Positions 15,627 to 64,000 of a stretch of DNA of 64,000 bases are shown here, piece after piece. The notes under the pieces are model-generated. The model saw only the letters and a program-made list of their open reading frames with translations. It did no database searches and was not told the DNA's origin. Position 1 is the stretch's first letter. Each line of letters starts with the position of its first letter. The position numbers and the translations under genes are program-made. Source of the DNA: Halichoerus grypus (taxonomy: Eukaryota > Chordata > Mammalia > Carnivora > Phocidae); assembly GCF_964656455.1 (NCBI RefSeq), contig NC_135720.1, forward strand, positions 99,956,696-100,020,695, written 5' to 3'.

Positions 15627-15695
15627 ATGGCCTTATTCCTGGAGTTGCTGTTCCTGGCTCTTGTGTTGCTTCCATTCTTTCCTGCAAATGGACAG
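15627..15695 (+). CDS. CRISP3: CRISP3-like coding exon 1 (signal peptide)
   Basis: The exon begins at 15625 after the acceptor 'ttttcccag'; the ATG at 15627 has A at -3 and G at +4 (strong start context). It encodes 23 residues beginning [16 protein letters not shown], a leucine-rich signal peptide ending PANGQ. The donor is gtatgg and the exon ends in phase 0. The sequence is clearly diverged from the matching exon of the downstream gene ([16 protein letters not shown]). Confidence 0.93.
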
Positions 15696-18600: not shown

Positions 18601-21600
18601 ATGTCTTAATGTTTCTATTGTGTACCTTTATGGTTATAAAATATTATCACTCATATGGCTAGAAAAGGCACAGTAAGAATTCCCTTGAAACTAGAAATTG
18701 GCATCTGTGGCCTCAGAGGAGATTTTAATTTGTCATGCCATGAATTTCATCCTCCTTCTCAAAGCTTCAAATTACTTCTTTCCTATCTGTCATAGCTTTG
18801 GCTCAGGTTCATTGGCAATGCTTAACAACTAATATTGATTTGAACTGAATGCTCTTTAAAATGATCTTTGTTCCCTCGACCGTTTATTCACTCTTAAATG
18901 CAATTTTAACAAATGTTAAGAAGATAACCCTAATTTTATCTCCCTTTAGGATCCATCCTTTACTGCTTTGCTAACCACTCGAAAGCAAGTCCAAAAAGAG
19001 ATTGTAAATAAACACAATGAACTAAGGAAATCAGTCTCTCCACCTGCCAGCAACATGCTAAAGATGGTAAGAGGTAGTGATAAAGGCTAATGGTGTGAAT
19101 CAGCAGTGATAAGAGCAGGGAGCTGGTAACTGGCATCTCTTAAGAACTTTGTTTTGCTTCCATTCTGCTATTTCATTTGAGCTGTATTATGGGCAGGGCA
19201 AAAATTAATTTTCCTTTATAATGGTTAAATAATCTAGCAAGGGTGCGGGGCTATTAAGTCGGGAAGGCATAATTAGAAGCCAAATCTTCAGACATCAAAT
19301 GTGAAGCCATTGCACTTTTTGTTCACTATCTGCCCTAGTCTAAAATAAAGGAGTCCACTTTCCTTCAAAATCAGTGCCATTTAGGGTTAATAATAGTTCA
19401 CTTTCCAAGACACAATCCATAAATGCTAGATATCTCCCATCTGAGTGCAGTGGGCTACAAGTGGAACTGGGAATAAACTAGGCTAGTTTATTACCATTGA
19501 AATATAATTTAAAGACTTCGCATATTGATGAGTGCTTAGACTAGCACTATTACTAAAAATCCTAGGTGTGGCTCCTGTGTTATCATAAATTGTCAGATAC
19601 TGTATTGGATATTTCTGTCAGTAGACACATCATTTATGAACTTCTCTTCATGTGGAAATTGGCACTGGAGCAGATAAACACACACACACACACACACCCC
19701 TAACAAAAGATCTTATCATACCAATGACAATGAATATATCTATAGAAATTTTAAAGTAGTGCGAATCAACCTACCAATCAGATTATAAAGTATATGTTTC
19801 ACTGGAGTTGAATCTTTAAGTGCATTTTTTTTTCTTGTGACATTTAGGAATGGAACCGAGAAGCAGCAGCAAATGCCCAAAAGTGGGCAAACAAGTGCAC
19901 TTTAGAACACAGCATGCCAGAGGACCGAAAAACCAGTACGTAAATGAGTATTTTTTGAATAAATGAACAAATAAAATAATATTGGAAAAATCAAATAGAA
20001 TGGAACATTCTGGGATGTTTTAGAAGACTTAATGAATAAATGTTGCTTATACTGCTCTATTTAAAATCAAGCTATCTGTAGAAGGAGAGAGAATTATAAG
20101 TATCATTTCGTGCTTGTTGACTGTTTATGTTATGCAAATAATTTCTGAAGCAATACTTCATTTGTTCCTCTCAACCAGCTCATGAGTCAACACGTCATGT
20201 ATCATCATTTCTCCAGCTTCAAAGATTAGGGACATGGGTGAAATGACCTAGGAGCACATCCTGAAGTTGTGTCATGTACTGGAAAGTTAACCAGGCTTAT
20301 TGATTTATTTTTTTAATCTTTTATTTAAGTTCAATTTAATTAATATATACTATATTATTAGTTTCAGAGGTGGAATTCAGTGATTCATCAGTTGCATACA
20401 ATACCCAGTGTTCATTATATCATGTGCCCTCCTTAATGTCCATCACCCAGTTACCCCATCCCCCCACGACCTTCCCTCCAGCAACCCTGAGTTTGTTTCC
20501 TAGAGTTAAGAGTCTCTTATGGTTTGCTTCCCTCTGTGTTTTCATCTTGTTATTTTCCTTCCTTTCCCTTATGTGTATCTGTTTTGTTTCTTAAATTCCA
20601 CATATGAGTGATATATATATATATATATATGATATATAGATATATAGAATATATAGAATATGTATATAGGAATATTACTCAGCCATCAAAAAGAATGAAA
20701 TCTTGCCATTTGCAATGATATGGATGGAACTAGAGGGTATTATACTTAGTGAAATAAGCCAGTCAGAGAAAGACAGGCTTATTGATTCCTAATCCACTGC
20801 CCTTTTTCTATATTGTGCTGCTGTTTGGTGTTTAAATATCTCTTTTTTTATGTTTATAAATATACTGAATTATGTGAATAGTTCCTGAATTTTGCTGTAA
20901 AAATACTTAAACTTTTAATATCATCATGAATATTTTGTGTATGTTCACTCAGTTTTTACTTTTTGATAATAAATAGTCAAGTAGTTTGCATAGACTGTGT
21001 ACCTATAAAGCATAGAATAATATATCACATGCAAAAAACTATAAAAGTTTCAAGAATTATAAAAATTATGAGAGAGAACTTTTATGCATAAACTTTACAT
21101 AAAATATTTATTTACATTATCAAGCATGAAAGGCAAACTCAATTTGAAAGTAGTGAATAATTACCTATAATTTCAGTAGAATTATTATTTATATTGTTGA
21201 TATTAACATTATAATGAAATTATGAAGAGAGATAACTGCATTCAGTAGAAGATTAAAACAAATGGTCTTAAGATCAAATTATGTTAGATTCTGAGTTTCT
21301 TTCCTTCCATATTAAAGAAGATATACAAGAATATTTTATATTCTCTTGAAGCAGCATGTAGACATAATATTTCAAGCCACCAAAATGCAAATATTATGTG
21401 AGAGCTGAAAAGATAGGCAAATGTTTCTGGGCTGCAAGACATTTATTAATGTTTTCATTTTTTTATTATTTTTTATTTTTTATTCTTATTTTTTAATTAA
21501 TTTTATTGTAACAACAATGCTTTTTAAAAAATTTTATTGTAGTAAGAATACTTAACATGAGACCTACACTCTTGACCAATTTTTAAATATATTATACAAT

Positions 21601-24600
21601 ATTGTTGACTACATGTACATGTTGTATAGCAGATATCTAGAACTTATTCACCTTGCTTACCTGAAATTCATTGATTAGTAAGTCCCCATTTCTCCTTTCC
21701 CTCATCCCCAGCCGCCACCATTGCACTCTTTGATTCTGTGAATTTGATTCTTTTAGATATTTCACATAAATGGACTCGTTTAGTAGTCTTTCTGTGACTG
21801 GTATATTTTGCTTAGCATCATGTCCTCAAGTTTCACCCATGTTATCACATGTTGCAAAACTTCCTTCTTTTTTTAAAGATGAATGATATTCATCATATAT
21901 ATATATATATATATATATATGTCATCTTGTCATCCGTTCACCTGTCCATGAACATTTAGGTTGTTTCCAAATGTTGCCTATTATGACTAGTGCTGCAACG
22001 AACATGAGTGTACTAATATCTCTTCAAGATGCTGATTTCAATTCTTTTGGATAAATACTCAGAAGTGGTATTGCTGGATCATTTTGTAGCTCTACTTTCA
22101 ATTTTTTGAGGAACCTCCATACTGTTTTCCACAGCAGCTACACTATTTTTTCATTCTCACCAACAGTGTACATGATTCCGATTTCTCTACATCCTCACCA
22201 TTACTTGTTGTCTTTTTTTTTCTTTTTGGTAATAGACATCAAAACAGATGTAAGGTGATATCTCATTGTGATTTTAATGTACATTTCTCTGATGATTAGT
22301 AATGTCGAGCTTCTTTTCACATACCTGTTGGTCATCTGTATGTCTTCTTTGGAAAAATGCCTGTTCAAATCTTCTGCCCATTTTTTGAGCAGAAGAGATG
22401 AACAGGTATTTTTACAAAGAAGACCTACAGGTGGCCAGCACTGACATGAAAAGATGTTCAAAATCAGCCATCATCAGGGAAATGCAAATCAAAACTACAG
22501 TGAGGTATCACCTCACACTTATCAGCATGGCTAAAATTAAAAAAAAAAAAAAAACAATAAACAACAACTGTTGGAGAGGATGTGGAGAAAAAGGAACCCT
22601 CATGCACTCTTCGTGGGAATCCAAACTGATGCTACCACTGTGGAAGACAGTACAGAGGTCCTTGAAAAAGTTAAAAATAGAACTATCTTGCAATCCAGTA
22701 ATTATGCTACTGGCTGTTAACCCCAAAACTACACAAACACTAATTCAAAGGGATACATGCACCTCTATGTTTACAACAGCATTATTTATAATAGCCAAAT
22801 TATGGAAGCAGCCCAAGTGTCCACTGATAAATGAATGGATAGAGATGTGTATACACATACGCATATATATATATATATGATGCAATATTATTCAGCCATA
22901 AAAAAGGAAATTTTGTCATTTGGAACCACATGGATGGAGCTAGAGAGTATAAGGCTAGGTAAAATAAGTCAGAGAAAAACAAATTTTATATGATTTCACT
23001 CATATGTGGAATTTGAGAAACAAAACAAATGAGAGAAAAGAAAGAGAGAGAGACAAACCAAGAAAATTACTCAACATAGAGAACAAACTGATGATTACCA
23101 GAGGGGAGGTGGGTGGGAGGATGGGTGAAATAGGTGATGGGGATTAAGGAGTGCACTTGTGATGAGCACAGAGTGATATATAAAATTGTTGAATCACTAT
23201 ATTGTACACCTGAAACTAATATAACACTGTATGTTAACTGTATTGGAATTAATAAAATAAAATAAAATAAATTAAAATGCTAAATAAAAAGTGGTAAATA
23301 AAAAATATTCAGAAAAAACAAAACAAAACCAAATCTGCCCATTTTTAAATAGGGATAATTTTTGCTATTGGGTTATATGAGTTCTTTATATACTTTGAAA
23401 ATTAACTCCTTATCAATTATAAGCTATGCAAATGTTTTCACCCATTCCATAAGTTGCCTTTTCACTTTGTTGATTGTTTCTTTTGTTGTGGAGAAACTTT
23501 TTAGTTTTGTTCAGTCCCACTTATTTATTTTTGCTTTTGTTGCTTATACTTTTAGTGTCCTATCCAGGAAAGAATTGCTAAGACCAATGTCAAAGAGGTT
23601 TTTCTGTATGTTTTCTTCTAGGAAGTTGTCGGTTTCAGGTCTTATGTTTAAATCTTTAATCTGTTTTGAGTTAATTTTTGTGAGTGTTTTAAGATAGGGG
23701 TCTAAATTAACTCTTCTCCATGTGGCTGTGCAATTTTCTCATCACCACTCTTTGAAGAGAGTATTTTTTGCCCATTGAGAAGAATTAATATTGTTAAAAT
23801 GTCCATGTGACCCAAAGCCATTTATATACCCATTGGTCAGTTGTACATCTTCCTTGGAGAAATGTCTATTCAAGTTCATTGTGATCAAAAAAGATCTATA
23901 GTCAATTCCTCAGGCAGCCCCCTGAAAAAGATAGATCTTTGGGCATTTCATCCAACTCTTTCAGCTGAAACTTGGGTTTTTTATCTATTCACTCTGTGCT
24001 GAACTAGGAAGGGAAGCTGTGGCAACTATGAACCCAAATCTCTATCTATTCTCATTTGCCCCAGGCAGCTAGATTATGCTGGATCTTATTAGCATTCTCA
24101 GAGAGGAAAGTCAGAAGCCAGTCTTTGGGGCAGCCTCTGGAAAATTTGTGGCATTTGATACCCAGACCAAAACTGTCCCACTCCAGGGAGAAACAGGCAG
24201 CAGTGGTGTTAGTCAGCTTGCTCTGTGCTGAGCTGGGGAGAAGAGCCATGGCACCTACCAATCCAAACTACCATCTCTGCTCTCCCCCAGGGGGCAACAC
24301 TGCGAAAAACTTCAGAGCTCCAAGACTGGCAAGACAGAAGTCAGTTCTTTAGGGACCCCTGGAGAAATTGGAGCGTTGGACACACTGATCAACTCTTTGC
24401 TTCCCCAGGAGGAAGCTGAGAACTAAGATTTTTCATTTGCTTGCTCTGTGCTGAGCCAAGGGGAGGAGATATGGTATCTACCAGCTCAAGCCACCATCTC
24501 CATTCTCCTACAGATGGCTAGCCTGTGCCTGACTGTCAGAGCTCCAAGACTACCAAGACAGAAGCCAGCCATCTGGGGAGTTTCCATAGGGAAGGTTGGG

Positions 24601-27600
24601 ATGCTGGACACAAGAACCAACTCCTTCCTTCCCCTGGGAGAAGTTGGGGGCTAGGGGACCTTTTCCTGATCATATGGCAGGCACTGTGCTGAGGGTAAGC
24701 ATTCTAGCAAGAGGGTGTCCCAGTTTCACTACAGACTTCAGTGAGTTGGGGTTCATATTCTCCCAGGGTCTAGGAGACTTTCAATTAGTTTTGGATTTCC
24801 CACCAAGGCAATTTTTTGGAAATTGTTGCTGGATCAGCGTGTTTGTTAAGGGAAAGAGAGTCCAAGGCTCCCTACTCCACCGTCTTGCTGATGTCACCTT
24901 CGGCAAGGCTCTTCTTGCCTAATTCTAAAGGAGGAAGATTTGGTCTTATGATATTCTGATTTAGTGATTAAGAGGGAATCCAAAAGCTTTGAAATCTGCC
25001 ATCCCTCCTGATGTCAGTTGCCTGTTAATTGGGGCTCTTATAGGCTGCCTGTAGAACTCTTTTTCCAAGTTCACACAAAATCATAATCATAAACATTTAG
25101 ACAGGGTCCAATATGTGAAAAATCTCTGGTGAGGGTAGACAAGAGGAGAAAAAGAATAAAAGTTGGTCACTGCCTTTTGCAAATTTACAGCACAAAGCTG
25201 AGAGCATAGGAGTCATTACAATGTGAAGAATTTAGCTTGAAAAAGAATGCATCTCTGAAACTCCAGAGGATTTTTGAATAATAACGTCTTCTTAACCTAT
25301 TCAAAGTTTTGCATGTTGATGCCGACCGCCGTGTCCTAGACTGATCTGTCTTTTTTTTTTTTTTTTTAAGATTTATTTATTTTTGCGATGCCTGGGTAGC
25401 TCATTTGGTTAAGGGTCTGCCTTCAGCTCAGGTCATGATCCCAGGGTCCTGGGATTGAATCTGGCATCTGGCTCCTGGCTCAGCGAGGAGCCTGCTTCTC
25501 CCTCTGCCTGCAGTTCCCACTGCTTGTGCTCTCTTTCCCACAAATAAATAAATAAAATCTTTAAAAGAAAGATTTATTTATTTTAGAGAGAGAAATAGAG
25601 TGTGAGCAGGAGGAGGGGCAGAGGGAGAGAGAGAGAATCCTCAAGCAGACTCCCTTCTGAGTGAGGAGCCTGATCCAGGGCTTGATCTCAGGATCCTGAG
25701 ACCATGAACTAGCCGAAATCAAAAGTCAGCCTCTTAACCCACTAAGCAACCTTGATGTCCCTAGACAGATCTGTCTTCTATTCAGCTTTAGAGCTGAGAA
25801 GGACAGAAGCCCTTTTATTATGTATTAACAGTTATAAGTATAGGCACTGTGTTTGAAGGTCAGCATCCTTGTGTTCGTATAGTTGATTTCTTTTTTTTTT
25901 ATGTTATGTTAGTCAACATACAGACATCATTAGTTTTTGATGTAGTGTTCCATGATTCATTATTTGCATATAACACCCAGTGCTCATTGCAACATGTGCC
26001 CTCCTTAATACCCATCACCAGACTACCCCATCCCCTGACCCCCCTCCCCTCTGAAACCCTCAGATTGTTTCCCAGAGTCCATAGTCTCTCATGGTTCATC
26101 TCCCCCTCTGATTTTCCCTCTTTCAGTTTTCCCTTCCTTCCCCTAATGTTCTCTGTGCTATTCCTTATGTTCTACATAAGAGTGAAGCCATATAGTTGAT
26201 TTCTTTTGCCATTGCATGTTTTATTGCTTCCTCAAGGATGATCTATTTCTATTTAGGTACAAAATGTGGTGAGAATCTCTTTATGTCAAGTTACCCTGCT
26301 TCCTGGTCAGATGCAATCCAAAACTGGTATGAGGAGTACCATAATTTTGTCTATGGTGTAGGACCTAAGAGTTCTGATGCAGTTGTTGGACATTACACCC
26401 AGGTAAGACAAACAAATGAAAATACTTCTACCACAAATGCTCTAATATGAAAGCATCTCTAAATTATGGCCAAGTCCGATGTTCAATTTGAGTAAGAGCC
26501 TGAATAGATGTTAATAGTCCTCGCATTGGGTGGTACTTCATCTAGAGCTGTCATTTTTTCCCATCACTTGAAAAACTCTTGGTAAGAAAGCATACTCTGT
26601 ACTTTTTCAAACTTAGAAATGGATAAAATAGTGAAGGTACTTTAAGATTTAATACTTTAAAATTTGTGATTTTCTTCAATAATTGAACTAAATGTTTTCA
26701 AAAGGTACTTGGCTCCAAACTATAATAGTAACATTTTTTCAGTTTTACATTTGCTGTTACTATTTTTTTCAATATTTTCCCTCTTCTTTAATGTACTCTC
26801 ATATATTCCTTTTTGGAAATGTAGGTCGTTTGGTACTCTTCTTACCACGTTGGATGTGGAATTGCCTATTGTCCCAACCAAGAAAGTCTAAAATACTACT
26901 ATGTTTGCCAATATTGTCCTGCGTAAGTATATACTTTAGAATTTCATGCAATAATCCTATGTACAAATTAATATTTTTAAAATTCTTGTATAGAAAACAA
27001 ACTAGAATATAAAATATATTTCGGTAAAGGGAAGGAATAAATCCTTTTTTCATTTTTTAAAATTGATACATAGTTCATACACAATGTCACCTTAGTTTTA
27101 TGTGCATGACATAGTGACAGGTCTATACCTTGTGCTATGCTCACCACATGTGTAGCTATCAGCAGTCACCATACAATGCTATTATAACTATTTTTTATTT
27201 TTTTAAAGATTTTTATTTATATATTTGTCAGAAAGCACAAGCAGGAGGAACGGCAGGCAGAGGGAGAAGCAGGCTCCCCACTGAGCAGGGAGCCTGATGT
27301 GGGACTCAATCCCAGGACCCTGGGATCATGACCTGAGCCAAATGCAGACTCTAAACTGCATGAGCCACCCAGGCGTCCCATGCTATAATAACTATTACAA
27401 TACTATTGACTCTAGTCCCTATGCTGTACTTTTTATCCCCATGACTTATTTATTCCATAACTGGAAGCCTGTACCTCCCACTCCCCTTCAAATATTTTGC
27501 CCACCCCCCATTGCCACCCCTCTGGCAAACATCATTTTGTTCTTGTACTTATGGTCTGTGTCTGCTTTTTATTTTTTTTATTTTGTTTTTTAGAATCCCT

Positions 27601-30255
27601 ATATAAGTGAAATCATATGGTATCTGTCTTTTTCTGTCTAACTTATTTTACTTAGCATAATACCATCTAGGTCATCTAGAAGGAATAAATCTTTGGAAAT
27701 GCCTTTTAAGTTGAGATACATTCAACTTAGCAGGGAAGAGACCAGGTTCTCAAATCCAAGTATAAAATCTGAAACTCTCTTCCCTCAGTTACAGAGTGAC
27801 ATCTTTTCTTTCAGTCGCCTTTCCCGTCAGCTCACAGCTATTCCATGAGCCTGGGCGGTGTGCATTTCTCTAGATTTGATATCATCAGTTCTCATCAACT
27901 TCACACTTTAGGAGGGTGGCAGCTTGATGGTTAAGCAAGGGATGGTAGTGGACTGGCAAGTAGGGGATGGCAGATTGCAATTTCACCTCGGCCTGCTAAA
28001 AAGTTCCTTGCCCTACTTATCTAAAAAACTCCCTACATTGTTACCATCACAGATGATTCATTCTTTTGCGTCTCAAAGATTTTTCAAGAGATTTTTAATG
28101 TACTTCAGAATCCAGAAAAGAACATCTTCAGTCTTTGCTTTTCAGAAGTTTTCACAAAATTTCCATAATGAATCAACCTTTAAGGTCTTGACCAGTAGCA
28201 GGAAATATGTTCTTTCATCAAGGATTATGTTTAAACTTACCTACAATAAATTCTGTGGATATACTGAAGACCTAATCTCAACTTACCTGTTAACCTTACT
28301 TTCTTTTAATGTTTGAAGTTTCTTGCCACTGGAGACAGGAGGACCCCTAGAACCAAGGCTCCTATAGGATTTATTTTGAGATTGTAGATAACCTGAGCAT
28401 ATGGATCTCCAGGGTGAGAAGTATGACCTCCAATGTCATTTTCCTGCAAGCACTTCTTAGGGTTTAGTAGAAAGAATTGAAAGGTCCTAGGAGAATGCAT
28501 CCAAACTCACCGGCTGGCTGTAAGAGAGGAGGCTCTGGAACCAGGCATCTGAAGTGAGAGTTTGGAGTGAAAAATGAGGGAAAGCAGGGGCGAGAAAACT
28601 TCCAGAACATGTTTGTGTCTATTTCACATTTTTCCAGGGGCTCACACATGGTCAATTATATTCTGTGCAGGGAGTGAGATTCAGATGCATGACATTGTAT
28701 TTTTGGCCCACTTGGTACAATTGAGACTTTGACTCTCTTGAAAAATATTCATCAATGAGATGTAGGCTAGATACTGTAAGACCAATATACCTTAGCGATT
28801 AGTGTTAATAAAACTGTTTTTTAACATTCCCATTTTTGTAAATATTAAAATCTCACACACAAAGCATCTAGACATTCAAAAACCTTTTAAGCATCCCTAC
28901 TCCCAAAAACATACACCAAAAACTACTTTAAAAAATCATTACTTCCATCTTTTTTTTAATGTCTTATTTATTTATTTGAGAGAGGGAGAGCGCGCGAGAG
29001 AGAACAAGAAGAGGGGTGGGGCGAGGGAGGGGGACAAGCAGACGCCTCACTGAGCAGGGAGCCCAACATGGGGCTTGATCCCAGGACCCTGGAATCATGA
29101 CCTGAGCTGAAGTCAGACACTTAACCACCTGAGCCACCCAGTTGCCCCAAATCATTACCTCCATCTTGAAGCCAAAATTATCCAGGGGCTTTACCTTCCC
29201 TAGTTCATATTATAGAGATTATCACTTTTTTAGATATAAAATTATATGTAACTTTAAGCATTTCCACACTGCAACCCTTTCTCTCCCAGTAACTTGTACA
29301 GTCTCTCTAAGGAATATGTTTTATCACTAGCCAGCACCTTAGAGTACACTACTTTAGCAATTTGACCAAGTCTTTTGGGGGAGAAAGAATGTTGTCATGT
29401 TGAAATGTACTCCGAATATTTTAGACCCTATTCATCCCATTTCAATTGTTCAGGCTGTGAAATAATGGTCAAGGAAGTCAGTGCATATGTATGTTATTTT
29501 CTTTACATTGATATCTGAGTACATTTTGGGAATTTTAGTTTGTCAGTTATTTGACATGATGAAAAACATTGACCAAATATTCAGGTACATATGGTGATAG
29601 ATGCTACCCTGGGAGCATAAACTAAACTGAAAAATGAAAAATGTCTGACATTTTGTATTTCAAATTTCAGTGGCAATCTTCTTAGCAAGATTTATACCCC
29701 TTACCTAAAAGGAGAACCTTGTGCCCGCTGCCTTCATCACTGTGACAATGGACTATGCAGTAAGTTTGAAGTCATTAATTTGCTAGTATATATAATAGAA
29801 TGACCTGGCTTTTTTTTTCCTTTGAGTATCTTTTATTTTTTAAAATTATTTATTTAAATTCAATTTAATTAACATATATTTCATTATTAGCTTCAGGGGT
29901 AGAATTTAGCAATTCATCAGTTGCATATAATACCCAGTGCTCATTGCATCAAGTGCCCTCCTTAATGCCCATCACCTGGTTACCCCATCCCCCTACCCAC
30001 CTCCCCTCCAGCAACCCTCAGTTTGTTTCCTAGAGTTCAGCATCTCTTATGGTTTGCCTCCTTCTCTGTTTTCAACTTATTTTATTTTTCCTTCCTTTCC
30101 CCTATGTTCTTCTGTTTTGTTCTTTAATTCCACATGAGTGAAATCATATGATGTTTGTCTTTCTCTGACTGGCTTATCTCACTTAGCCTAATACCCTCTG
30201 GTTCCAACCATGTTGTTGTAAATGGCAAGATTTCATTCTTTTTGATGGCCAAGCA

Positions 30256-30307
<52 letters not shown>

Positions 30308-33300: not shown

Positions 33301-34371
33301 CAAGTGGATGAAAGCCAGCTTGGAGACTGTTGAAAACATGGGTTTGAAAAACAAATGAATGTTTTTACTGCATTCTGACAAAATGAATGAAGAGAAATGG
33401 ACAGTAATGAGCAATAGGTAGGAAGTAGTAAAACCAGTGTTTGTTACTTGCACTTGGTAAATGCTGATAAAAAGTAGAGAGCAATGAGTTCATGTTGATT
33501 CCCAGTTCCTGATTTGAATTATTTAGTAGTTAGGAGTTTAATTCCTCTTATCCCAGGGGAATTGAGTTGGGAGTTGGGGAGTGACTCCAAAGAAATGCCA
33601 CACTTGGAGGTAAAATGATGAATTTAGTTTGAGAGTTATTGAGTTTGTAACCACTGAGGAACTTCAAAGTAGAAATGTCCGATAATCATAGTGAAATTCC
33701 CTCTAGTTTTTACATCCACATCTTCTCATAATGATTTCTTACTCTTGAAAGAAAGACTAGTGGCACTAGAATCTGTATAGAGCAATAGTGTCTAATATAA
33801 ATTTTTTCAATAACGGAAATGTTCAATATTTGCACTGTCATGTAAAGTAGCTCCTAGATAGACTGGTTATCGAGCATTTGGAATGTAACAAGTATCACCA
33901 ATGACCTGAAAATTTATTTTTTAATGTTATGTGATTTTAATTAATTTAAATTTAAACAACCACATGGCTAGAGGCTAAAATTTGGACACTGTAATTGTAG
34001 AGAGACTCATTTAAGCTTATTTTATTTTCTGAGGGAAGAAAATAGGTCAATTCATTTTAGAAACATTCCAAAAAGCTCAAATTTTAAAAGAAATGATGGA
34101 CTAATGTGTCCCTTTGTATCATAATGTGATACCAACTTCTTTGCTCAATTGTCTTCTCCCCACTTACATTGAATTTATTGTTTGCACTGCTGCTATGGAG
34201 GAAAACAATAATGAACTGACTAATTTCTTTGTTTTTATTCCAGCCAATACTTGTGAATATGAAGATCGTTATTCTAACTGTAATGCTTTGAAGAAAAGCT
34301 ATACCTGTAGCCATAATTTTGTCAAGACAAATTGCAAAGCTTCCTGCGAATGTGAAGACAAAATTTATTAA
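15627..34371 (+). CDS. CRISP3: Cysteine-rich secretory protein, CRISP3-like (7 coding exons, complete)
   Basis: Secreted CAP-superfamily protein. CRISP3 in other mammals is found in saliva, seminal plasma and neutrophil granules. The CDS joins 15627-15695, 18950-19066, 19848-19935, 26257-26402, 26825-26922, 29671-29759 and 34244-34371, giving 735 nt, 244 residues and a TAA stop; every junction keeps frame with GT-AG borders. Residues 1-23 contain a hydrophobic signal peptide. The CAP domain follows (NKHNELRK with His45; GHYTQVVW at 136-143; [11 protein letters not shown] near 164-174). The hinge and C-terminal CRISP/ion-channel-regulator domain end in CECEDKIY. I count 16 cysteines after the signal peptide, the full CRISP complement. 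Human CRISP3 has 245 residues and CRISP2 243. [15 protein letters not shown] and the C-terminal 'YEDxYSNC' recall CRISP3; 'KCTLEHSxPEDRKTS' recalls CRISP2, probably because of gene conversion with the downstream gene. Family assignment is firm; the symbol rests on gene order and partial similarity. Confidence 0.9.
16797..16996 (-). mobile_element. SINEC, minus
   Basis: Flanked by 'ctaaagatttttt' (16788 and 16997). It ends 'ccaactgagccatgcaggagcccc'. Confidence 0.87.
17010..17176. repeat. Segment present inverted and relocated in the second gene
   Basis: It aligns, at roughly 85-90% by eye, to the reverse complement of 59190-59347. Shared landmarks are 'tctctggtccatctcctggtcttcatt' and 'atattttgctcttttgcactgct'. 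The following 17177-17335 resembles an L2 3' end. Confidence 0.8.
17355..17442 (-). mobile_element. Truncated SINEC, minus
   Basis: Only the tail half remains. Flanked by 'cgaaataaatt' at 17344 and 17443, so it arose as a short insertion. Confidence 0.7.
18950..19066 (+). CDS. CRISP3: CRISP3-like coding exon 2 (start of CAP domain)
   Basis: 117 nt, phase 0 at both ends, acceptor 'tccctttag', donor gtaaga. It encodes [18 protein letters not shown] followed by [18 protein letters not shown] and LKM, the N-terminal CAP segment with the conserved His of NKHNE. Only 4 nucleotides differ from the exon at 59634-59750, giving three amino-acid changes (T/A, R/Q, K/T), and the flanking intron is equally conserved. 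Confidence 0.95.
19067..19847 (+). other. CRISP3: CRISP3-like intron 2, with shared (CA)n
   Basis: Both ends near the exons are nearly identical to the second gene (59751-60592), while the middle is more diverged. A (CA)n run at 19677-19697 has a shorter counterpart at 60422-60437. Confidence 0.8.
19848..19935 (+). CDS. CRISP3: CRISP3-like coding exon 3 (CAP domain)
   Basis: 88 nt, acceptor 'gacatttag', encoding [17 protein letters not shown] and then [12 protein letters not shown], ending in phase 1. Two GT dinucleotides overlap at the 3' end (ccaGTACGTaaat). Only the first one keeps frame with the next exon, restoring S-T-K-C-G-E. The matching exon of the second gene differs by one base (Met to Val). 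Confidence 0.95.
20306..20774 (-). mobile_element. L1 3' end with inverted 5' part
   Basis: Minus-strand L1 3' UTR at 20306-20610, an AT microsatellite, then a plus-strand ORF2-end/3' piece ('caaaaagaatgaaatcttgcc') at about 20660-20774. A 13-bp duplication (aggcttattgatt) lies at 20293-20305 and 20775-20787. The second gene has the uninterrupted site near 61295. Confidence 0.88.
21500..22385 (-). mobile_element. Older L1 3' region, shared by both paralogues
   Basis: Minus-strand L1 3' UTR and ORF2 end. A related copy lies at 61900-62740 in the second gene, so it predates the duplication. It resumes at 23334-23880 after a younger L1 interruption. (TA)n at about 21893-21920. Confidence 0.85.
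22386..23333 (+). mobile_element. Younger L1 nested in the older L1
   Basis: Plus-strand ORF2 C-terminus ('[12 protein letters not shown]', '[18 protein letters not shown]'), 3' UTR and A-rich tail. The 13-bp sequence 'tctgcccattttt' is repeated at 22373-22385 and 23334-23346. Confidence 0.88.
23334..23880 (-). mobile_element. Continuation of older L1 (ORF2)
   Basis: Minus-strand ORF2 ('ttagttttgttcagtcccac', 'ctcatcaccactctttgaagag'). It ends just before the tandem block that starts at about 23890. Confidence 0.82.
23992..24670 (+). repeat. Three tandem units of about 225 bp
   Basis: Units start at 23992, 24221 and 24444, each with 'ctctgtgctgag/actgggg-like' and ending '(g)aagctgagaactaagattttt...gcttg'. 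A partial unit precedes them. The same three units lie at 62871, 63093 and 63324. Open frames across this block (for example 24448-24654) are incidental and lack gene structure. Family unknown. Confidence 0.8.
24345..25120. repeat. Near-identical block shared with 63225-64000
   Basis: At constant offset 38880 (apart from small indels) the two stretches differ at only scattered positions; 24481-24760 is essentially identical to 63361-63640. Sequence just before (23992-24300) is visibly more diverged. Confidence 0.88.
25352..25761 (-). mobile_element. SINEC, minus, split by a second SINE
   Basis: Flanked by 'tagac(t/a)gatctgtct' at 25337-25351 and 25762-25776. The body resumes at 25570 after the nested copy. 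Confidence 0.87.
25385..25569 (+). mobile_element. SINEC, plus, nested
   Basis: 'gcgatgcctgggtagctcatttgg ... aataaataaaatctttaaaaga', inserted into the tail of the minus SINE. 'agatttatttatttt' is duplicated on both sides (25369 and 25570). Confidence 0.87.
25895..26190 (-). mobile_element. L1 3' UTR fragment upstream of exon 4
   Basis: Minus strand ('gttatgttagtcaacatacag ... ataagagtgaagcca'). The 17-bp duplication 'tatagttgatttctttt' lies at 25878-25894 and 26191-26207, leaving about 50 bp to the acceptor of coding exon 4. Confidence 0.87.
26257..26402 (+). CDS. CRISP3: CRISP3-like coding exon 4 (CAP core)
   Basis: 146 nt, acceptor 'tttctatttag', donor gtaaga. After two bases completing a Ser codon it encodes [20 protein letters not shown] and continues to [14 protein letters not shown], including the first half of the CAP signature (GHYTQVVW) with its conserved His. 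An L1 insertion ends only about 50 bp upstream of the acceptor. Confidence 0.96.
26825..26922 (+). CDS. CRISP3: CRISP3-like coding exon 5 (end of CAP domain)
   Basis: 98 nt, acceptor 'ggaaatgtag', donor gtaagt. It encodes [20 protein letters not shown] and [12 protein letters not shown], completing the two CAP signatures, and carries four conserved cysteines. It ends in phase 2, splitting an Ala codon. Confidence 0.96.
27055..27670 (-). mobile_element. Old L1 3' fragment interrupted by a SINE
   Basis: 'aattgatacatagttcatacacaatg' and 'catttgttcttgtacttatggtctgtg-like' L1M-type 3' sequence. Split at 27193-27379 by a SINE. Confidence 0.65.
27193..27379 (-). mobile_element. SINEC, minus
   Basis: 'atgctat(t/a)ataactatt' is duplicated at 27176-27192 and 27380-27396. 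Standard head complement 'gagccacccaggcgtccc'. Confidence 0.88.
28952..29148 (-). mobile_element. SINEC, minus
   Basis: 'aaatcattac(t/c)tccatctt' is duplicated at both ends. The interior is purine-rich. The rest of the intron 27.7-29.67 kb shows no exon. Confidence 0.88.
29671..29759 (+). CDS. CRISP3: CRISP3-like coding exon 6 (hinge)
   Basis: 89 nt, acceptor 'caaatttcag', donor gtaagt. It encodes [20 protein letters not shown] and LHHCDNGLC, the cysteine-rich hinge linking the CAP domain to the C-terminal CRISP domain. It carries four cysteines in the PCxxCxxxCxxxLC spacing shared by mammalian CRISPs. Confidence 0.95.
29811..32041 (-). mobile_element. L1 3' UTR and ORF2, minus, with SINE and (TG)n
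   Basis: Long minus-strand L1 from the 3' UTR through ORF2 ('[20 protein letters not shown]'). It carries a (TG)n tract at 30257-30308 and a SINE at 30738. ORF2 is broken by several frameshifts. It is joined to an inverted 5' piece at about 32042. Confidence 0.88.
30738..30912 (-). mobile_element. SINEC, minus, 5'-truncated, inside L1
   Basis: 'ttttttttttttaagattttatttgtttgacag' to 'cgaaggcatacgctta'; the head is missing. Confidence 0.82.
32042..32340 (+). mobile_element. Inverted 5' part of the 29.8 kb L1
   Basis: Plus-strand ORF2 reverse-transcriptase segment ([22 protein letters not shown]), placed head-on to the minus-strand body. This is the mark of twin-primed integration. About 180 bp of ORF2 is missing at the junction. 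Confidence 0.82.
32350..34243 (+). other. CRISP3: Last intron of CRISP3-like gene, unique part
   Basis: AT-rich sequence with no further exon or recent transposon that I can identify. Confidence 0.6.
34244..34371 (+). CDS. CRISP3: CRISP3-like coding exon 7 (CRISP/ICR domain and stop)
   Basis: 128 nt from the acceptor 'tttttattccag' to TAA at 34369-34371. It encodes [20 protein letters not shown] and then [21 protein letters not shown], with the six-cysteine ion-channel-regulator motif complete. The terminal KIY resembles human CRISP2, while 'YEDxYSNC' resembles CRISP3. Confidence 0.95.
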
Positions 34372-52591: not shown

Positions 52592-52831
52592 ACGTTATGG
52601 ATACATTTTTATTAAGAGAATCAAATTAATTTTACTCTTTACTCACTTTATCAAGTTGAAACTTAAATTAATTCTTTAGATTTCATCTTAAAATAGATAA
52701 TATAATTAATTCTCAGGTTTATGACTTTGAAACAATTATTCTAGAACTATCTTTACTAGAAGAAATGTAAAAGAATGACAAATTGTATATATTATTGATG
52801 ATTTTTACTATGAACATCTATGATTATGTAT
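52592..52831 (+). repeat. 240-bp direct repeat, copy 1 (ancestral place)
   Basis: It is followed and preceded by sequence that aligns with the CRISP3-like intron after 7495, so this is the original copy. Copy 2 is 1060 bp downstream with one visible mismatch. Confidence 0.9.
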
Positions 52832-54633: not shown

Positions 54634-54702
54634 ATGGCATTATGCCCACTAGTGGTGTTTCTGGCTGCTGTGCTGCTTCCATCTATACCCACAGAAGGAA
54701 AG
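54634..54702 (+). CDS. CRISP2: CRISP2-like coding exon 1 (signal peptide)
   Basis: The exon starts at 54632 after the acceptor 'cttatttcccag'; the ATG at 54634 has A at -3 and G at +4. 23 codons end ...IPTEGK at donor gtaaag, phase 0. Splicing of the 37-nt exon at 52452 to 54632 is in frame but contains no ATG, so this ATG is the expected start. Confidence 0.92.
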
Positions 54703-57700: not shown

Positions 57701-60680
57701 GAAATATTATTCAACCATAAAAAAGAGTGAAATCTTGTCATTTGCAACAACATGGATAGAGCTAGAGAATATAATGCTAAGCAAAATAAGTCAGTCAGAG
57801 AAAGACAAATAGCATATGATCTCACTTATAAGGGCAATTTAAGAAACAAAACAAATGAGAAAAGGAAAAAAAGAGAGAGAGAGAGAGAAACCAAAAAACA
57901 GACTATTAATTATACAGAACAAATAGATGGTTACCAGAGGGGAGTAGATGAGGGGATGGGGGAAGTAGGTGATGGGGATTAACGAGTATACTTATCATGA
58001 TGAAATAACATTTAAAAAATTATAAAATAAATTAATATCACTGGATTCTTTTACTTTTTTAATGTGACCACCAAAAAGTTAAAATTACGTGTCATGCTTG
58101 AATTATTTTTTTATGGACACACTGGTCTGTGATTTAAAAAGCTAATGATACAAACTGAGGGTTCTAGAGGGGAGGGGGGTAGGGGGATGGGTTAGCCTGC
58201 TGATGGGTATTAAAGAGGGCACGTATTGAATGGAGCACTGGGTGTTATACACAAACAATGAACCATGGAACACTACATCAAATACTAATGATGTAATGTA
58301 TGGTGATTAACATAACATAATAAAATAAAATTTTAAAAAATGATAAAAAAAAGCTAATGATAGTCCTCTCCCCATGAGATCTTTTCCCATTTATTTTATT
58401 TAATGTGCTTCAGTGTGATCTTAAAGAAAATTAACAATAACATAACCTTAAATTAGCACAGCTTCATATATTGCCATGTTTAATTTTCATCATTTCTATA
58501 TGATAAAGTTTTACTTATTTTTTACATTAAAAAAATCTACCTCTAAAAGTCTTAGTGTTTGTTTTGCTTTCTTATTCATGTGCAAAAACTTGGTATGTGA
58601 GAGCCCAACTCTTGAATTCAAATCTTCTAATTTGAATAAACTACTTTGCTTTAAATAATCCCAAGACCAAGATCAATCATCCTCTTCAATAATTGGGGGT
58701 TGGTTCCCATATATGGTGTCTATCTCTTGATCAGAAAATCTCTGAATGTGAGGAGCTCTGGTCATTGCTGTTTCTCCATCTCTAACTCTGGGCATACAGG
58801 AAGACATCCCAGGACCAGAGACTACTAGGACTAGAACCTATCAGACTAGAGAATTCTGATACTGGCTGAAAACTCATTTGGCATTCAGAAATACAGATTG
58901 TAATATAATAGATCATAATATCTACCATAATAGGAATAATTTTACTAGCATATTGAATGAACTTTGAACTCCTGAACATTCTTTCTCTAAATATATTATG
59001 AATACATTATTTCTCTAAATACAGACTGTATCAGGTTAAATTTCCCTTAAAGTCAAGGGTGAATCTTGAGCCCCACCCTCATCCTACTTGCTGCAGCCTG
59101 ATCAAATATGAATGAATATGTTTTAATGTTCCTGTTGTGTGTCTTTGGGGTTATAAAATATTATCACTCATATGTCTAGAAGAATCACAGAGAAGGTGCA
59201 GGAAACCATATGGGGCAGAAAGTAGAGAATCTGATTAACAAACATGTAGCAGTGCAAAAGAGCAAAATATATTTCTTAAATAATTTTATAAATGAAGACC
59301 AGGAGATGGACCAGAGAAATAACAGGGGATTGGGAAGGGCCATGAAAGGAGAAAAAGCACATTAAGAATTACCTTGAAACTAGAAATTGGCATCTGTGGC
59401 CTCAGAGATTTTAATTTGTCATGCCGTGAATTTCATCCTTCTCAAAGCTTCAAATTACTTCTTTCCTATCTGTCATAGCTTTGGCTCAGGTTCATTGGCA
59501 ATGCTTAACAACTAATATTGATTTGAACTGCATGCTCTTAAAATGATCTTTGTTCCCTTGAATTCGCTTATTCACTTTTAAATGCAATTTTAACAAATGT
59601 TAAGAAGATAACCCTAATTTTATCTCCCTTTAGGATCCATCCTTTACTGCTTTGCTAGCTACTCAAACGCAAGTCCAAAAAGAGATTGTAAATAAACACA
59701 ATGAACTAAGGAAATCAGTCTCTCCACCTGCCAGCAACATGCTAAAGATGGTAAGAGGCAGCGATAAAAGCTAATGGTGTGAATCAGCAGTGATAAGAGC
59801 AGGGAGCTGGTAACTGGCATCTCTTAAGAACTTTGTGCTTACAAAGTTTTGCTTCTATTCTGCTATTTTATTTGAGCTGTGTTATGGGCATGCAGAAATT
59901 AATTTTCATTTTTAATGGTTAAATAATCTGTCAAGGTTACAGGGCTATTAAGTCGGGAAGGCAAAATTAGAAGGCAGATCTTCAGATACCAAGTGTGAAG
60001 CCTTTGCATTTTTGTTCACTATCTGCCCTAGCCTAAAATAAAGGAGGTCCTTTTCTTTCATGTATTTTATTCTTTTTAAATAATCTCTATGACAACGTGA
60101 GGCTCAGACTCAGGAGCCGAAGAGTCCTGTGGGTAAATACGAGCCCACTTTCCATAGCATAGTTCATAAACACTAGACTATCTTCCATTTGAATGCAATG
60201 GGCTGCAAGTGGAATTGGGAATAATCTAGGCCTGCTTATTACTAAGGAAATATAATACAAAGACTTCACACCTTGAGTATTTAGAGTAGCCCCATTACTA
60301 AAAATCCTACATGTGATTCCTGTACTATCATAAATTGTCAGATATTATATTAGATATTTCTATCATTAGACACATCATTTATGAACTTCTCTTCATGTGG
60401 ATATTGGCACTGGAGCAGATAAACACACACACACACATATATACCCCTAACAAAAAGGTCTTTTCATATCACTAACGATCAGATACTATATAGAAGTTTA
60501 AAGTAGTGCAAATCAACCTACCAATCAGATTATAAACCATATGCTTTGTTGGAGTTGAATCTTTAAGTGTATTTTTTTCTTGTGACATTTAGGAATGGAA
60601 CCGAGAAGCAGCAGCAAATGCCCAAAAGTGGGCAAACAAGTGCACTTTAGAACACAGCGTGCCAGAGGACCGAAAAACCA
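54634..60680 (+). CDS. CRISP2: Cysteine-rich secretory protein, CRISP2-like (5' part; continues beyond window)
   Basis: CRISP2 (TPX1) is a testis and sperm protein of the acrosome and flagellum, linked to sperm-egg interaction and ion-channel regulation. Coding exons visible are 54634-54702 (signal peptide), 59634-59750 and 60593-60680, which are in frame (23 residues, 39 residues, then 29 residues plus one base). The product starts [19 protein letters not shown] and reads [20 protein letters not shown], close to human CRISP2 (MALLPVLFLVTVLLPSLPAEGK from memory). The ICR, hinge and later CAP exons lie past 64000. Three 5' noncoding exons and a CpG-containing start also fit CRISP2, which has several noncoding 5' exons in human. 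The CAP exons are nearly identical to those of the upstream gene, so identity rests on the signal peptide, promoter type and gene order. Confidence 0.88.
55096..55540 (+). repeat. Old interspersed repeat, same family as 14163-14555
   Basis: 'tattaggttctcaaggctgttgtaag ... tgtcattggatttaggtcctacttgg'. A (GAA)n/(A)n run at 55003-55039 precedes it. Subfamily not identified. Confidence 0.6.
55565..58025 (+). mobile_element. 5'-truncated L1 (ORF2 RT to 3' end)
   Basis: It begins in the RT domain ('catgatcaagtaggatttattc'). ORF2 is broken, but 56639-57301 stays open for 220 codons. The FADD motif reads 'LAHD' (gcacatgac), as in the 43.7 kb copy. It ends after (GATA)n (57571-57654) in an A-rich tail. 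Confidence 0.9.
57571..57654 (+). repeat. (GATA)n microsatellite in L1
   Basis: Interrupted GATA/GATG tetranucleotide run, followed by a TA/TG-rich stretch to about 57700. Confidence 0.9.
58151..58347 (+). mobile_element. Short 5'-truncated L1 3' end
   Basis: 'caaactgagggttctagagg ... ggtgattaacataac' plus A-rich tail. A perfect 15-bp duplication (aaaaagctaatgata) lies at 58136-58150 and 58348-58362. The paralogous intron near 16170 has the site empty. Confidence 0.92.
59190..59347. repeat. Inverted copy of CRISP3-like intron segment 17010-17176
   Basis: Inserted between 'tctaga' and 'aaaaagcac', where the first gene reads continuously (near 18660). Confidence 0.8.
59634..59750 (+). CDS. 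CRISP2: CRISP2-like coding exon 2 (CAP domain)
   Basis: 117 nt, acceptor 'tccctttag', donor gtaaga, phase 0. It encodes [18 protein letters not shown] followed by [18 protein letters not shown] and LKM. It differs from 18950-19066 at four nucleotides, all within a 12-base stretch; the rest is identical. Confidence 0.94.
60593..60680 (+). CDS. CRISP2: CRISP2-like coding exon 3 (CAP domain)
   Basis: 88 nt, acceptor 'gacatttag', encoding [17 protein letters not shown] then [12 protein letters not shown], phase 1 end with the same overlapping GTACGT donor as 19936. There is one substitution relative to the other gene (ATG to GTG, Met to Val). Confidence 0.94.
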
Positions 60681-60805
60681 GTACGTAAATGAGTATTTTT
60701 TGAATAAATGAACAAATAAAATAATATTGGAAAAATCAAATAGAATGGAACATTCTGGGGTGTTATAAGAAGACTTCGAGAATAAATGTTGCTTATACTG
60801 CTCTA

Positions 60806-61041
60806 TTTATTTATTATTTATTTATTTTTATTTTTTAGAGAGAGAGAGTGTGTGAGCGGCGGGGGGTGGGGGGAAGGGGCGGGGGGAGGGGCAGAGGGAG
60901 AGAGAGAGAATCCCAAGCAGGCTCCATGTCCAGTGTGGAGCCTTACACCTTACACGGGGCTTGATTTCACGACCCTGAGATCATGACCTGAGCTGAAATC
61001 AAGAGTTGGTTGCTTAACCGACTGAGCCATCCAGGCGCCCC
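60806..61041 (-). mobile_element. SINEC (older type), minus
   Basis: 'tttttagagagagagagtgtgtgagcgg ... ccgactgagccatccaggcgcccc'. It is absent from the paralogous position near 20065, where 'ctctatttaaaatcaag' is uninterrupted. Confidence 0.88.
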
Positions 61042-61899
61042 TATAGTGTTCTTTTTAAAATTAAAGTATCTGTAGAAGGAGAGAGAATTATAGGTACCAT
61101 TTTGTGCTTGTTGATTGTTTACATTATGCAAATGACGTCTGAAGCAATACTTCATTTTGTCTTTCAACCAGCTCATGAGTCAACAGGTCATGTATCATTA
61201 TTTCTCCAGATTTAAAGATGAGAAGATGAGGACTGGGGAGGAATGACTTCCCCAAGACACAATCTGAAGTGTGTCATATACTGGAAAGTTAACCAGGCTT
61301 AATTATTTCTAATCCTCTGCTCTTTTTTGTGATATTGTGTAGCTGTTTGAAGTTTTCATATCTCTTCTTTTGTATTCATAAGATACTAAATTATGGTGAT
61401 TTTTTCCTGAATTTTGTGACTTTTGCTCTAAAAATACTTAAATTTATAAAATCATGATAAATACTTTGGGTATGTTGGTTCATTTTTTAATTTTTGAATC
61501 CTTATCAAGTATTATACTATGAAAGAAAAAATGTTTTATGCATAAATCTTTACATCAAATATTTATTTATGTTATCAACCATAATATACATATAGGCAAG
61601 CTCAATTTGAAAGCAATGAATTTTTACCTTTAATTTCATCACATTATTACTTATATTGTTGATGCTGTTCTATTAATGAAATTATGAAGAGAATGACTGC
61701 ATTCAGTAAAGATTAAAACAAATGGTCTTAAAGATGCAAGTCTACTATTAGATTCTTAGTTTCTTTTTTCCATATTAAAAGAGATACCCAAGAATATTTT
61801 ATACTCTCTTTAAGCAGCAGGTAGACATTATATTTCAAGCTACCCAAATGTAACTCATAATTGAGAGCTTGAAAAGATAGAGAAAAGTTCCTGGGCAAC

Positions 61900-62870: not shown

Positions 62871-63550
62871 CTCTGTGCTAAACTAGGAAGGGAAGCTATG
62901 GCAACTATGAATCCAAATCTCTAGCCTCATGAGCTCCACATCTTAGTTATGCTAGATCTGTTAACATTTTCAGAGAGGCAAGTCAGAAGTCAATCCTCTG
63001 GGCAGCATCTGGAAAATCTGTGGCACTGGATGCCCAGGCCAACTTTTTCCCACTACAGGGAGAAACAGGCAGCTATGGTATTTGCTTGCTTGCTCTGTGC
63101 TGAGCTGGGGAGATGAGCCATGGCATCTACCAATCCAAACCACCATCTCTGTTCTCCCCCAGGAAGTAACACTGTAACTGTGTCAAACCCATCAGAGCTT
63201 CAAGACAAGCAAGACAGAAGTCAGTTCTTTAGGGACCCCTGGAGAAATTGGAGCATTGGATACACTGATCAATTCTTTGCTTCCCCAGGAGGAAGCTGAG
63301 AACTAAGATTTTTCATTTGCTTGCTCTGTGCTGAGCCAAGGGGAGGAAATATGGTATCTACCAGCTCAAGCCACCATCTCCATTCTCCTACAGATGGCTA
63401 GCCTGTGCCTGACTGTCAGAGCTCCAAGACTACCAAGACAGAAGCCAGCCATCTGGGGAGTTTCCATAGGGAAGGTTGGGATGCTGGACACAAGAACCAA
63501 CTCCTTCCTTCCCCTGGGAGAAGTTGGGGGCTAGGGGACCTTTTCCTGAT
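62871..63550 (+). repeat. Three tandem units of about 225 bp (paralogous block)
   Basis: Units start at 62871, 63093 and 63324, matching the block at 23992. The third unit is nearly identical between genes, the first two less so. It continues as shared intron to the window end. Confidence 0.8.
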
Positions 63551-64000
63551 CATATGGCAGGCACTGTGCTGAGGGTAAGCATTCTAGCAAGAGGGTGTCC
63601 CAGTTTCACTACAGACTTCAGTGAGTTGGGGTTCATATTCTCCCAGGGTCTAGGAGTCTCAATTAGTTTTGGATTTCCCACCAAGGCAATTTTTTTTGGA
63701 AATTGTTGCTGGATCAGTGTGTTTGTTAAGGGAAAGAGAGTCCAAGGCTCCCTACTCCACCGTCTTGTTGATGTCACCTTCGGCAAGGCTCTTCTTGCCT
63801 AATTCTAAAGGAGGAAGATTTGGCCTTATGATATTCTGATTCAGTGATTAAGAGAGAAGCCAAAAGCTTTGAAATCTGCCATCCCTCCTGATGTCAGTTT
63901 CCTGTTAACTGGGGCTCTTATAGACTGCCTGTAGAACTCTTTTTCCAAGTTCACACAAAATCATAATCATAAACATTTAGACAAGGTCCAATATGTAAAA

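What the first reader, a model, noticed from the sequence alone, without database searches (positions are those of the whole stretch)
18690..20060. CAP-domain exons of the tandem CRISP genes look homogenised by gene conversion
Seen: exon pairs 18950/59634 and 19848/60593 differ by 4/117 and 1/88 nt, and the flanking introns (about 18690-19120 and 19900-20060, against 59367-59790 and 60650-60790) are similarly close. The middle of the intron between them is much more diverged, and the signal-peptide exons with their upstream introns are clearly different. Introns being preserved along with the exons argues against protein-level selection alone. The resulting CRISP3-like protein mixes CRISP3-like and CRISP2-like residues, so the two secreted proteins share the N-terminal CAP surface but differ in signal peptide. 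Inference: repeated conversion tracts in a reproductive gene pair.
Basis: partly seen in the sequence, partly recalled or inferred. Interest (0 to 1): 0.75.

Follow-up and report, generated by a model that had tools for sequence, protein, structure and literature searches.

The report
CRISP2/CRISP3 gene pair share converted CAP
In this seal-like genome two neighbouring sperm-and-semen genes appear to have copied DNA into each other more than once across the exons for one domain (CAP) and the introns around them, while their signal peptides and ion-channel-regulating tails stayed very different, which may help explain why these genes are hard to name across mammals.

Summary
Gene A (CRISP3-like, 15627-34371, intact, 244 aa) and gene B (CRISP2, from 54634, ending 6.3 kb past the window) differ by 25-33% around exon 1 and the 3' end, but are nearly identical in patches over exons 2-5: A 18670-19173 (16/497 mismatches), 19808-20014 (2/205), 24332-25313 (19/980, all intron) and about 25763-28659 (exons 4-5 and intron 5; 132/2549 over 26190-28743). 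Silent-site divergence is 0.09 in exons 2-5, against 0.58 (exon 1) and 0.61 (exons 6-7). The strongest mark is a carnivore-type SINE in intron 5 of both genes, at the same site with the same 17-bp target duplication; the two copies are 96% alike, other scored near-full-length copies at most 88%. CRISP2/CRISP3 pairs occur in many eutherian orders, so this SINE was copied between older genes. Protein comparisons suggest several exchanges: carnivoran-wide for exon 3, caniform for exons 4-5, younger patches in the seal lineage. Exon trees alone are too weak to reject a simple history. The mechanism is a known kind; eight CRISP text searches showed no report of it.

The parts
15627..15695 (+). Gene A (CRISP3-like) exon 1, signal peptide
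   Evidence: Open frame with splice donor; 22/69 nt differ from B
18950..19066 (+).
   Evidence: 4/117 nt differ from B
19848..19935 (+).
   Evidence: 1/88 nt differ from B
26257..26402 (+).
   Evidence: 9/146 nt differ from B
26825..26922 (+).
   Evidence: 4/98 nt differ from B
29671..29759 (+). Gene A exon 6 (hinge/CRD)
   Evidence: 21/89 nt differ from B
34244..34371 (+). Gene A exon 7 (CRD, stop)
   Evidence: 39/128 nt differ from B
54634..54702 (+). Gene B (CRISP2) exon 1, signal peptide
59634..59750 (+). Gene B exon 2
60593..60680 (+). Gene B exon 3 (exons 4-7 lie beyond the window at window-continued coordinates 64635-64780, 65202-65299, 67954-68042, 70155-70282)
18670..19173 (+). Conversion tract 1, A side (exon 2 and flanking introns)
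   Evidence: 3-state HMM, 16/497 mismatches
59359..59868 (+). Conversion tract 1, B side
19808..20014 (+). Conversion tract 2, A side (exon 3 and flanking introns)
   Evidence: 2/205 mismatches
60555..60759 (+). Conversion tract 2, B side
24332..25313 (+). Conversion tract 3, A side, intron 3 only; 308 bp identical without gap at 24469-24776
   Evidence: 19/980 mismatches; the B copy is 97% identical, all other matches of the 40 scored candidates (of 52) 78% or less, mostly about 70%
63212..64000 (+). Conversion tract 3, B side (runs on to about 64196, past the window)
25763..28659 (+). Conversion tract group 4, A side (exons 4, 5 and intron 5); B side beyond the window at 64461-67050; the HMM breaks it into several sub-tracts and it holds an A-only insertion at 25877-26189
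   Evidence: 132/2549 mismatches over 26190-28743; 102/2221 noncoding and 13/244 coding over 26190-28658
27193..27379 (-). CanSINE-type element in intron 5 of A, present at the same place in B (about 65572-65757), with target duplications 27176-27192 and 27380-27396
   Evidence: alignment; A and B copies 96% alike, other scored near-full-length copies at most 88%
59178..59349 (.). B-only insert abutting the left end of tract 1; its reverse complement (86%) lies in A intron 1 at 17010-17176
60810..61057 (.). B-only insertion holding a SINE, 50 aligned columns past tract 2
20307..20788 (.). A-only insertion in intron 3

Best explanation
A and B are an old tandem pair (CRISP3-like and CRISP2, found in many eutherian orders). 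Recurrent interlocus gene conversion (non-allelic repair copying, probably between the tandem copies in meiosis) has overwritten stretches of 0.2 to about 3 kb between exon 2 and intron 5. [quoted passage not shown] Shown: patchy DNA near-identity, low silent divergence only in exons 2-5, and a shared derived SINE. Inferred: meiotic timing; direction (mostly B to A for exons 3-4, from the absence of a CRISP3-type residue and the CRISP2-like residues of caniform A; possibly A to B at the start of exon 5 in seals); and the result that both secreted proteins show nearly the same CAP surface (adhesion, egg binding) on different CRDs (ion-channel regulation) and from different signal peptides.
For: Permutation and HMM segmentation (BIC 9099 for one rate, 8241 for three; states 2.6%, 17.8%, 32.4%). 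dS 0.58 / 0.092 / 0.61 for exon 1 / 2-5 / 6-7; Fisher p 4e-6 on rounded counts 8/93 against 24/59. Intron-only tract 3. Shared SINE with the same target duplication. A to B amino-acid differences in exons 2-5 are 9/150, against 42-64 of 149-150 in 12 of the 13 non-carnivore pairs with full data (33/150 in Pan/Homo), while exons 6-7 differ at 29/71 in the window and 26-38/71 in those 13 pairs; the 14th, Pteropus, lacks exon 5 (44/117 and 19/64) (sums). A CRISP3-type extra residue at the exon 3/4 junction is present in 20 of 22 non-carnivore laurasiatherian CRISP3s and in 0 of 7 informative carnivoran A proteins of 8. On exons 6-7, A+B of Carnivora as one clade is rejected (AU p 0.019).
Against: Protein trees of exons 2-3 and 4-5 do not reject a single carnivoran A clade (p 0.127 and 0.30; 0.063 for exons 2-5), and carnivoran A with other CRISP3s is also a side of a branch in the exon 2-5 tree (74/95). 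In the 24-row exon 6-7 tree, A with B and the CRISP2s is not rejected (p 0.245). No DNA from other carnivores was held, so direction and dates are indirect. Val at the start of exon 5, my A-to-B hint, also occurs in 3 of 27 other informative CRISP2s and in the pangolin proteins.
Confidence: 0.93

Rival explanations
1. Purifying selection on the CAP domain (and regulatory introns) kept the two copies alike without DNA exchange.
For: Exons 2-5 encode a conserved fold; many residues are shared by the 20 CRISPs printed.
Against: Silent sites are homogenised too (dS 0.092 against about 0.6); 980 aligned bp of pure intron 3 differ at 1.9%; the same exons are strongly diverged between CRISP2 and CRISP3 in the non-carnivore pairs; a SINE is shared.
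Confidence: 0.02
2. A is a young carnivoran duplicate of CRISP2 whose two ends were replaced or evolved fast, so the middle is simply young.
For: Carnivoran A exons 2-5 resemble CRISP2 in places; several A proteins are named CRISP2-like in databases, though those of hyenas are named CRISP3-like.
Against: A exons 6-7 fall on the CRISP3 side against CRISP2 (99/97); divergence alternates between about 2% and about 18% within the middle, which one duplication age cannot give; DNA around exon 1 and the 3' end still aligns at 27-33% divergence, so the ends are old paralogous DNA.
Confidence: 0.04
3. Assembly artefact: reads of one gene were placed or polished into the other.
For: Only one assembly was examined at DNA level; no reads were available.
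Against: No N in the window or in the 30 kb after it; tracts differ by 1-5%, not 0%; private insertions sit in and between tracts; a walrus CRISP2 (P0121) and an elephant-seal A protein (P0009), from separate database records, show the same contrast (exons 2-3 differ 6/68, exons 6-7 28/71).
Confidence: 0.01

Closest known systems
SIGLEC11 / SIGLEC16 in primates (PMC5701461; abstract and passages seen)
   Same: Neighbouring paralogues homogenised by repeated, fragmented gene conversion over exons of the ligand-binding extracellular part; separate events in different lineages.
   Different: Those are paired inhibitory/activating receptors, the converted regions lie about 9 kb apart, and similar binding was measured; here the genes encode secreted reproductive proteins whose first exons lie 39 kb apart, the pair is older, and no function was measured.
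Mammalian BEX/GASP chimaerism by gene conversion (PMC1274310; search listing only)
   Same: Per its title, coding and noncoding chimaerism sustained by conversion in mammalian paralogues.
   Different: Other gene family; I did not read the text.
Mammalian CRISP2 / CRISP3 (EVAC2 / EVAC3) family (PMC7278046; abstract, outline and passages seen)
   Same: The two genes here are members: CAP plus Crisp domains. The paper reports unresolved orthology and calls CRISP3 ambiguous.
   Different: The words conversion and recombination have 0 occurrences in its main text; in the passage seen it suggests rapid divergence of the cluster and duplication as the reason for the difficulty.

Membership tests
Interlocus gene conversion between paralogues | Patches of near-identity with fairly sharp borders inside otherwise diverged paralogues | tested here: met
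   HMM and permutations
Interlocus gene conversion between paralogues | Patches include neutral DNA (introns, silent sites) | tested here: met
   19/980 in intron 3; dS 0.092 against about 0.6
Interlocus gene conversion between paralogues | Derived insertion shared at the same paralogous site | tested here: met
   CanSINE-type element with the same target duplication in both intron 5s; the family name is from recalled consensus
Interlocus gene conversion between paralogues | Flanks on both sides remain paralogous and diverged (not a crossover chimera) | tested here: met
   Exon 1 region 27-29%, region from exon 6 on 25-33%
Interlocus gene conversion between paralogues | Gene trees differ between segments | tested here: inconclusive
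   Exons 6-7 reject carnivoran A+B (p 0.019); exons 2-3, 4-5 and 2-5 do not reject an A clade
Interlocus gene conversion between paralogues | Confirmed in independent DNA (reads or related species) | not testable with these tools
   No other carnivore DNA was available to me; protein records only
CRISP (CAP + Crisp domain) secreted proteins | CAP domain PF00188 and Crisp domain PF08562 | tested here: met
   Both proteins, residues 42-170 and 190-244
CRISP (CAP + Crisp domain) secreted proteins | Sixteen cysteines and a signal peptide | tested here: met
   Gene A: 16 cysteines counted by eye in the sequence and a hydrophobic N-terminus; no signal predictor was run
CRISP3 orthology of gene A | Groups with CRISP3 outside the converted segment | tested here: met
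   Exons 6-7: A with other CRISP3s against CRISP2s, 99/97 in a 24-row tree from which horse CRISP3 was dropped; with horse kept (35 rows) the CRISP2 side also holds horse CRISP3, 100/97
CRISP3 orthology of gene A | Laurasiatherian CRISP3-type extra residue at the exon 3/4 junction | tested here: not met
   Absent in 7 of 7 informative carnivoran A proteins of 8; read as overwritten by CRISP2, so A is a CRISP3/CRISP2 mosaic

The most novel reading that the evidence does not exclude
CRISP2 and CRISP3 evolve across eutherians as a domain-exchange pair: conversion keeps passing either the CAP domain (Carnivora; perhaps exon 2 in apes and human) or the CRD (horse) between a testis and a glandular gene, and selection keeps the homogenised domain in some lineages. 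'CRISP3 orthology' is then not defined for whole genes, and CAP binding and CRD channel regulation are evolutionarily separable modules, as in paired receptors.
Probability: 0.3. Interest if true: 0.65.

Novelty: new member of a known kind. Interest (0 to 1): 0.5.

Why it matters
CRISP orthology in mammals is described in print as confused (PMC7278046). Segment-wise conversion gives a concrete, testable reason: different exons of one gene have different histories. Positive-selection and sexual-selection scans that treat CRISP2 and CRISP3 as whole-gene orthologues may be biased where tracts lie. It also offers a natural experiment: carnivores in which two secreted reproductive proteins share a CAP domain but carry different channel-regulating tails.

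Tried and rejected
Selection-only reading: rejected by intron and silent-site data. Young-duplicate reading: rejected by exons 6-7 and the alternating divergence. GC-biased conversion signature: GC of tract pieces (0.24-0.45) overlaps that of neighbours (0.29-0.46), no clear signal. Do tract ends abut private insertions? 4 of 8 ends lie within 85 aligned columns of a private insertion of 40 bp or more, random mean 1.74, P 0.07; median-distance test P 0.037: a hint only. The 85-column cutoff was chosen after seeing the distances, and the tract list was hand-picked from the HMM, leaving out two short low-divergence stretches (19624-19688 and 21223-21263) and merging the sub-tracts of block 4. 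Rfam search at gathering thresholds: no match. PDB search with exon 2 alone: six sequences named as in snake-venom CRISPs (that they are snake proteins is recalled), not used further. Tandem-repeat search of 23800-25400: none. Exon trees: too few columns for firm results. Exon-by-exon comparison is unreliable for P0009, P0121, P0125, P0123, P0026 and P0029, whose gene models miss or add stretches. The third protein-database search and both structure predictions were not used.

Full report
What is there. The window lies at G000:C9:99956696-100020695 of a 2.4-Gb genome. The top six proteins found with gene A are carnivoran. Gene A is 94% identical over exons 6-7 to an elephant-seal protein, and gene B's exons 6-7 are identical to walrus and stoat CRISP2, so the animal is most likely a pinniped (inference). 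Gene A is a complete CRISP gene of seven coding exons, 15627 to 34371, 244 aa. Gene B starts at 54634 and ends at window-continued coordinate 70282, beyond the window; I fetched 30 kb downstream and built its seven exons. Both carry Pfam CAP (residues 42-170) and Crisp (190-244) domains. A third, weaker CRISP-like locus lies about 109-113 kb upstream of the window (C9:99843982-99847478); it may be CRISP1 (recalled gene order, not tested).

The observation. Over 10,612 aligned columns a one-rate model is far worse than two or three rates (BIC 9099, 8294, 8241; a fourth rate gives 8273). The three rates are 2.6%, 17.8% and 32.4%. The low-rate stretches are 18670-19173, 19808-20014, 24332-25313 and a broken group from 25763 to 28659, plus two short ones (19624-19688, 21223-21263) that I do not count as tracts. 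Exon 1 and its surroundings and the region after 29273 are mostly at the high rate. Permuting mismatches over 9,877 noncoding columns 1,000 times never gave a run above 96 (observed 309) or a segment score above 124 (observed 1312).

Why it is DNA copying. Tract 24332-25313 is intron only and differs by 19/980. In the genome search its B copy is 97% identical, and every other match among the 40 scored candidates (of 52) is 78% or less, mostly about 70%. Silent divergence (Nei-Gojobori, my script) is 0.58 in exon 1, 0.092 in exons 2-5 and 0.61 in exons 6-7. In intron 5 both genes hold a SINE at the same site (A 27193-27379) with the same 17-bp target duplication, 16 of 17 matching between its two ends in A and 17 of 17 in B (read by eye). 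The copies are 96% alike; of the 40 scored candidates (of 2,581) no other near-full-length match to A's copy exceeds 88%, and one 29-bp fragment reaches 97%. I call it a CanSINE from its sequence and a recalled consensus. CanSINEs are unique to Carnivora according to PMC4084570 (abstract and passages). The same paper says that independent CanSINE insertions at one locus occur, with different yet overlapping target duplications, which is not the case here. CRISP2 and CRISP3 proteins both occur in sheep, bats, moles, shrews, primates, colugo, dugong and rodents, so the pair is older than the element.

How it was built up. I compared CRISP3 with CRISP2 by exon in 14 non-carnivore pairs. Two mix species (Myotis, Pan/Homo), and in Tamandua both proteins are named CRISP2-like, so its pairing is my choice. 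Of the 13 with exon-5 data, 12 differ at 42-64 of 149-150 residues in exons 2-5 and Pan/Homo at 33; in exons 6-7 they differ at 26-38 of 71. Pteropus lacks exon 5 (44/117 and 19/64). In the window pair exons 2-5 differ at 9/150 but exons 6-7 at 29/71. Mustelid genes (Enhydra A against Mustela B) are low in exons 2-5 (19/150). Felids (Panthera A against Prionailurus B) are low in exons 2-3 (10/68) but not in exons 4-5 (22/82). These two comparisons mix genera. An extra residue at the exon 3/4 junction is present in 20 of 22 laurasiatherian CRISP3s outside Carnivora that I picked by name from the lists (exceptions P0040, P0049), absent in 7 of 7 informative carnivoran A proteins (P0009 uninformative) and absent in 26 of 27 informative CRISP2s of 30 (the exception P0123 is an odd gene model). 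I read this as an early carnivoran overwrite of A by CRISP2, a later caniform one over exons 4-5, and younger patches within the seal lineage. Rough ages (about 10-20 Myr for the youngest tracts) would follow from a recalled neutral rate of about 1e-9 per site per year; this is not measured. At the first residue of exon 5 both pinniped CRISP2s (window, walrus) have Val like A, and the six other carnivoran CRISP2 records have Leu (P0005, P0091, P0125, P0026, P0029, P0123). But Val is also found in 3 of the 27 other informative CRISP2s and in the pangolin proteins, so A-to-B copying is only possible there.

Evidence against, told fully. Trees of exons 2-3 (35 rows) and 4-5 (34 rows) are poorly resolved. 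They do not reject a carnivoran A clade (p 0.127, 0.30), a B clade (0.328, 0.406), B with the other CRISP2s (0.201, 0.412), A with the other CRISP3s (0.213, 0.452) or A+B of Carnivora (0.323, 0.289). On exons 6-7 (35 rows) the A clade is in the tree but weak (59/83), and of the tests only A+B is rejected (0.019). In the 25-row exon 2-5 tree A sits between CRISP3 and CRISP2: both 'A with CRISP3' (74/95) and 'A with B and CRISP2' (93/82) are sides of a branch; an A clade has p 0.063 and caniform A with CRISP3 0.359. In the 24-row exon 6-7 tree, A with B and CRISP2 held together is not rejected (0.245), nor is caniform A with CRISP3 (0.275). Horse CRISP3 was left out of that tree because its exons 6-7 fall inside CRISP2. 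The window A exon 2-3 protein is nearest window B (94%), but the elephant-seal A shares residues with B at two sites where window A does not, so a conversion in this very species is not needed; a conversion in the seal stem would do.

Meaning. The CAP domain is described as adhesive and egg-interacting and the CRD as ion-channel regulating (PMC7278046, passages). The homogenised exons 2-5 (residues 24-173) hold the CAP domain. Shared CAP, private CRD and private signal peptide resemble SIGLEC11/SIGLEC16, where conversion is held to keep the binding part alike (PMC5701461, passages). Whether selection favours this, or conversion simply runs where the introns stayed alignable, is not decided. 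In exons 2-3 all four differing codons are replacements; in exons 4-5 five of eleven are. That is too few to argue selection.

Literature. Searches for CRISP2 or CRISP1 with CRISP3 and gene conversion, or for CRISP2 with CRISP3 and concerted evolution, gave 0 papers. 'Cysteine-rich secretory protein' with gene conversion gave 17, of which 15 were listed and two opened in passages; those passages report nothing on CRISP conversion. The other CRISP searches gave no title or abstract start on it; apart from PMC7278046 and the two above their papers were not opened. Searches were on SINEs and on gene conversion at large. The library lacks most subscription journals, so absence here is weak.

Noticed in passing
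P0020 (horse CRISP3), P0034 (rhinoceros CRISP3): Horse CRISP3 exons 6-7 fall inside the CRISP2 clade (100/97) while rhinoceros CRISP3 does not: a likely equid exchange of the other domain.
   Followed up: partly
P0030 and P0050 (Pan CRISP3, human CRISP2): Exon 2 differs at only 3 of 39 residues although exons 3, 4, 6 and 7 differ by 22-45%: possible separate exon-2 exchange in apes/human.
   Followed up: no
P0016 (meerkat 'CRISP2'): A-like exons 1-5 joined to CRISP2-like exons 6-7: a fused or deleted chimera, or a gene-prediction join.
   Followed up: no
P0010, P0013, P0023 (pangolins): CRISP3-type signal peptide with a CRISP2-like body: the exchange may go back to the carnivoran-pangolin ancestor.
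   Followed up: no
window 17010-17176 and 59178-59349: About 160 bp of A intron 1 occurs inverted in B intron 1 (86%), as a B-only insert right at the left border of tract 1.
   Followed up: partly
window 52592-52831 and 53652-53891: A 240-bp direct repeat, 239/240 identical, about 1.06 kb apart upstream of gene B.
   Followed up: no
P0095: A 'Salmonella enterica' CAP protein on a 1.3-kb contig that looks like a mammalian, shrew-like CRISP: probable database contamination.
   Followed up: no
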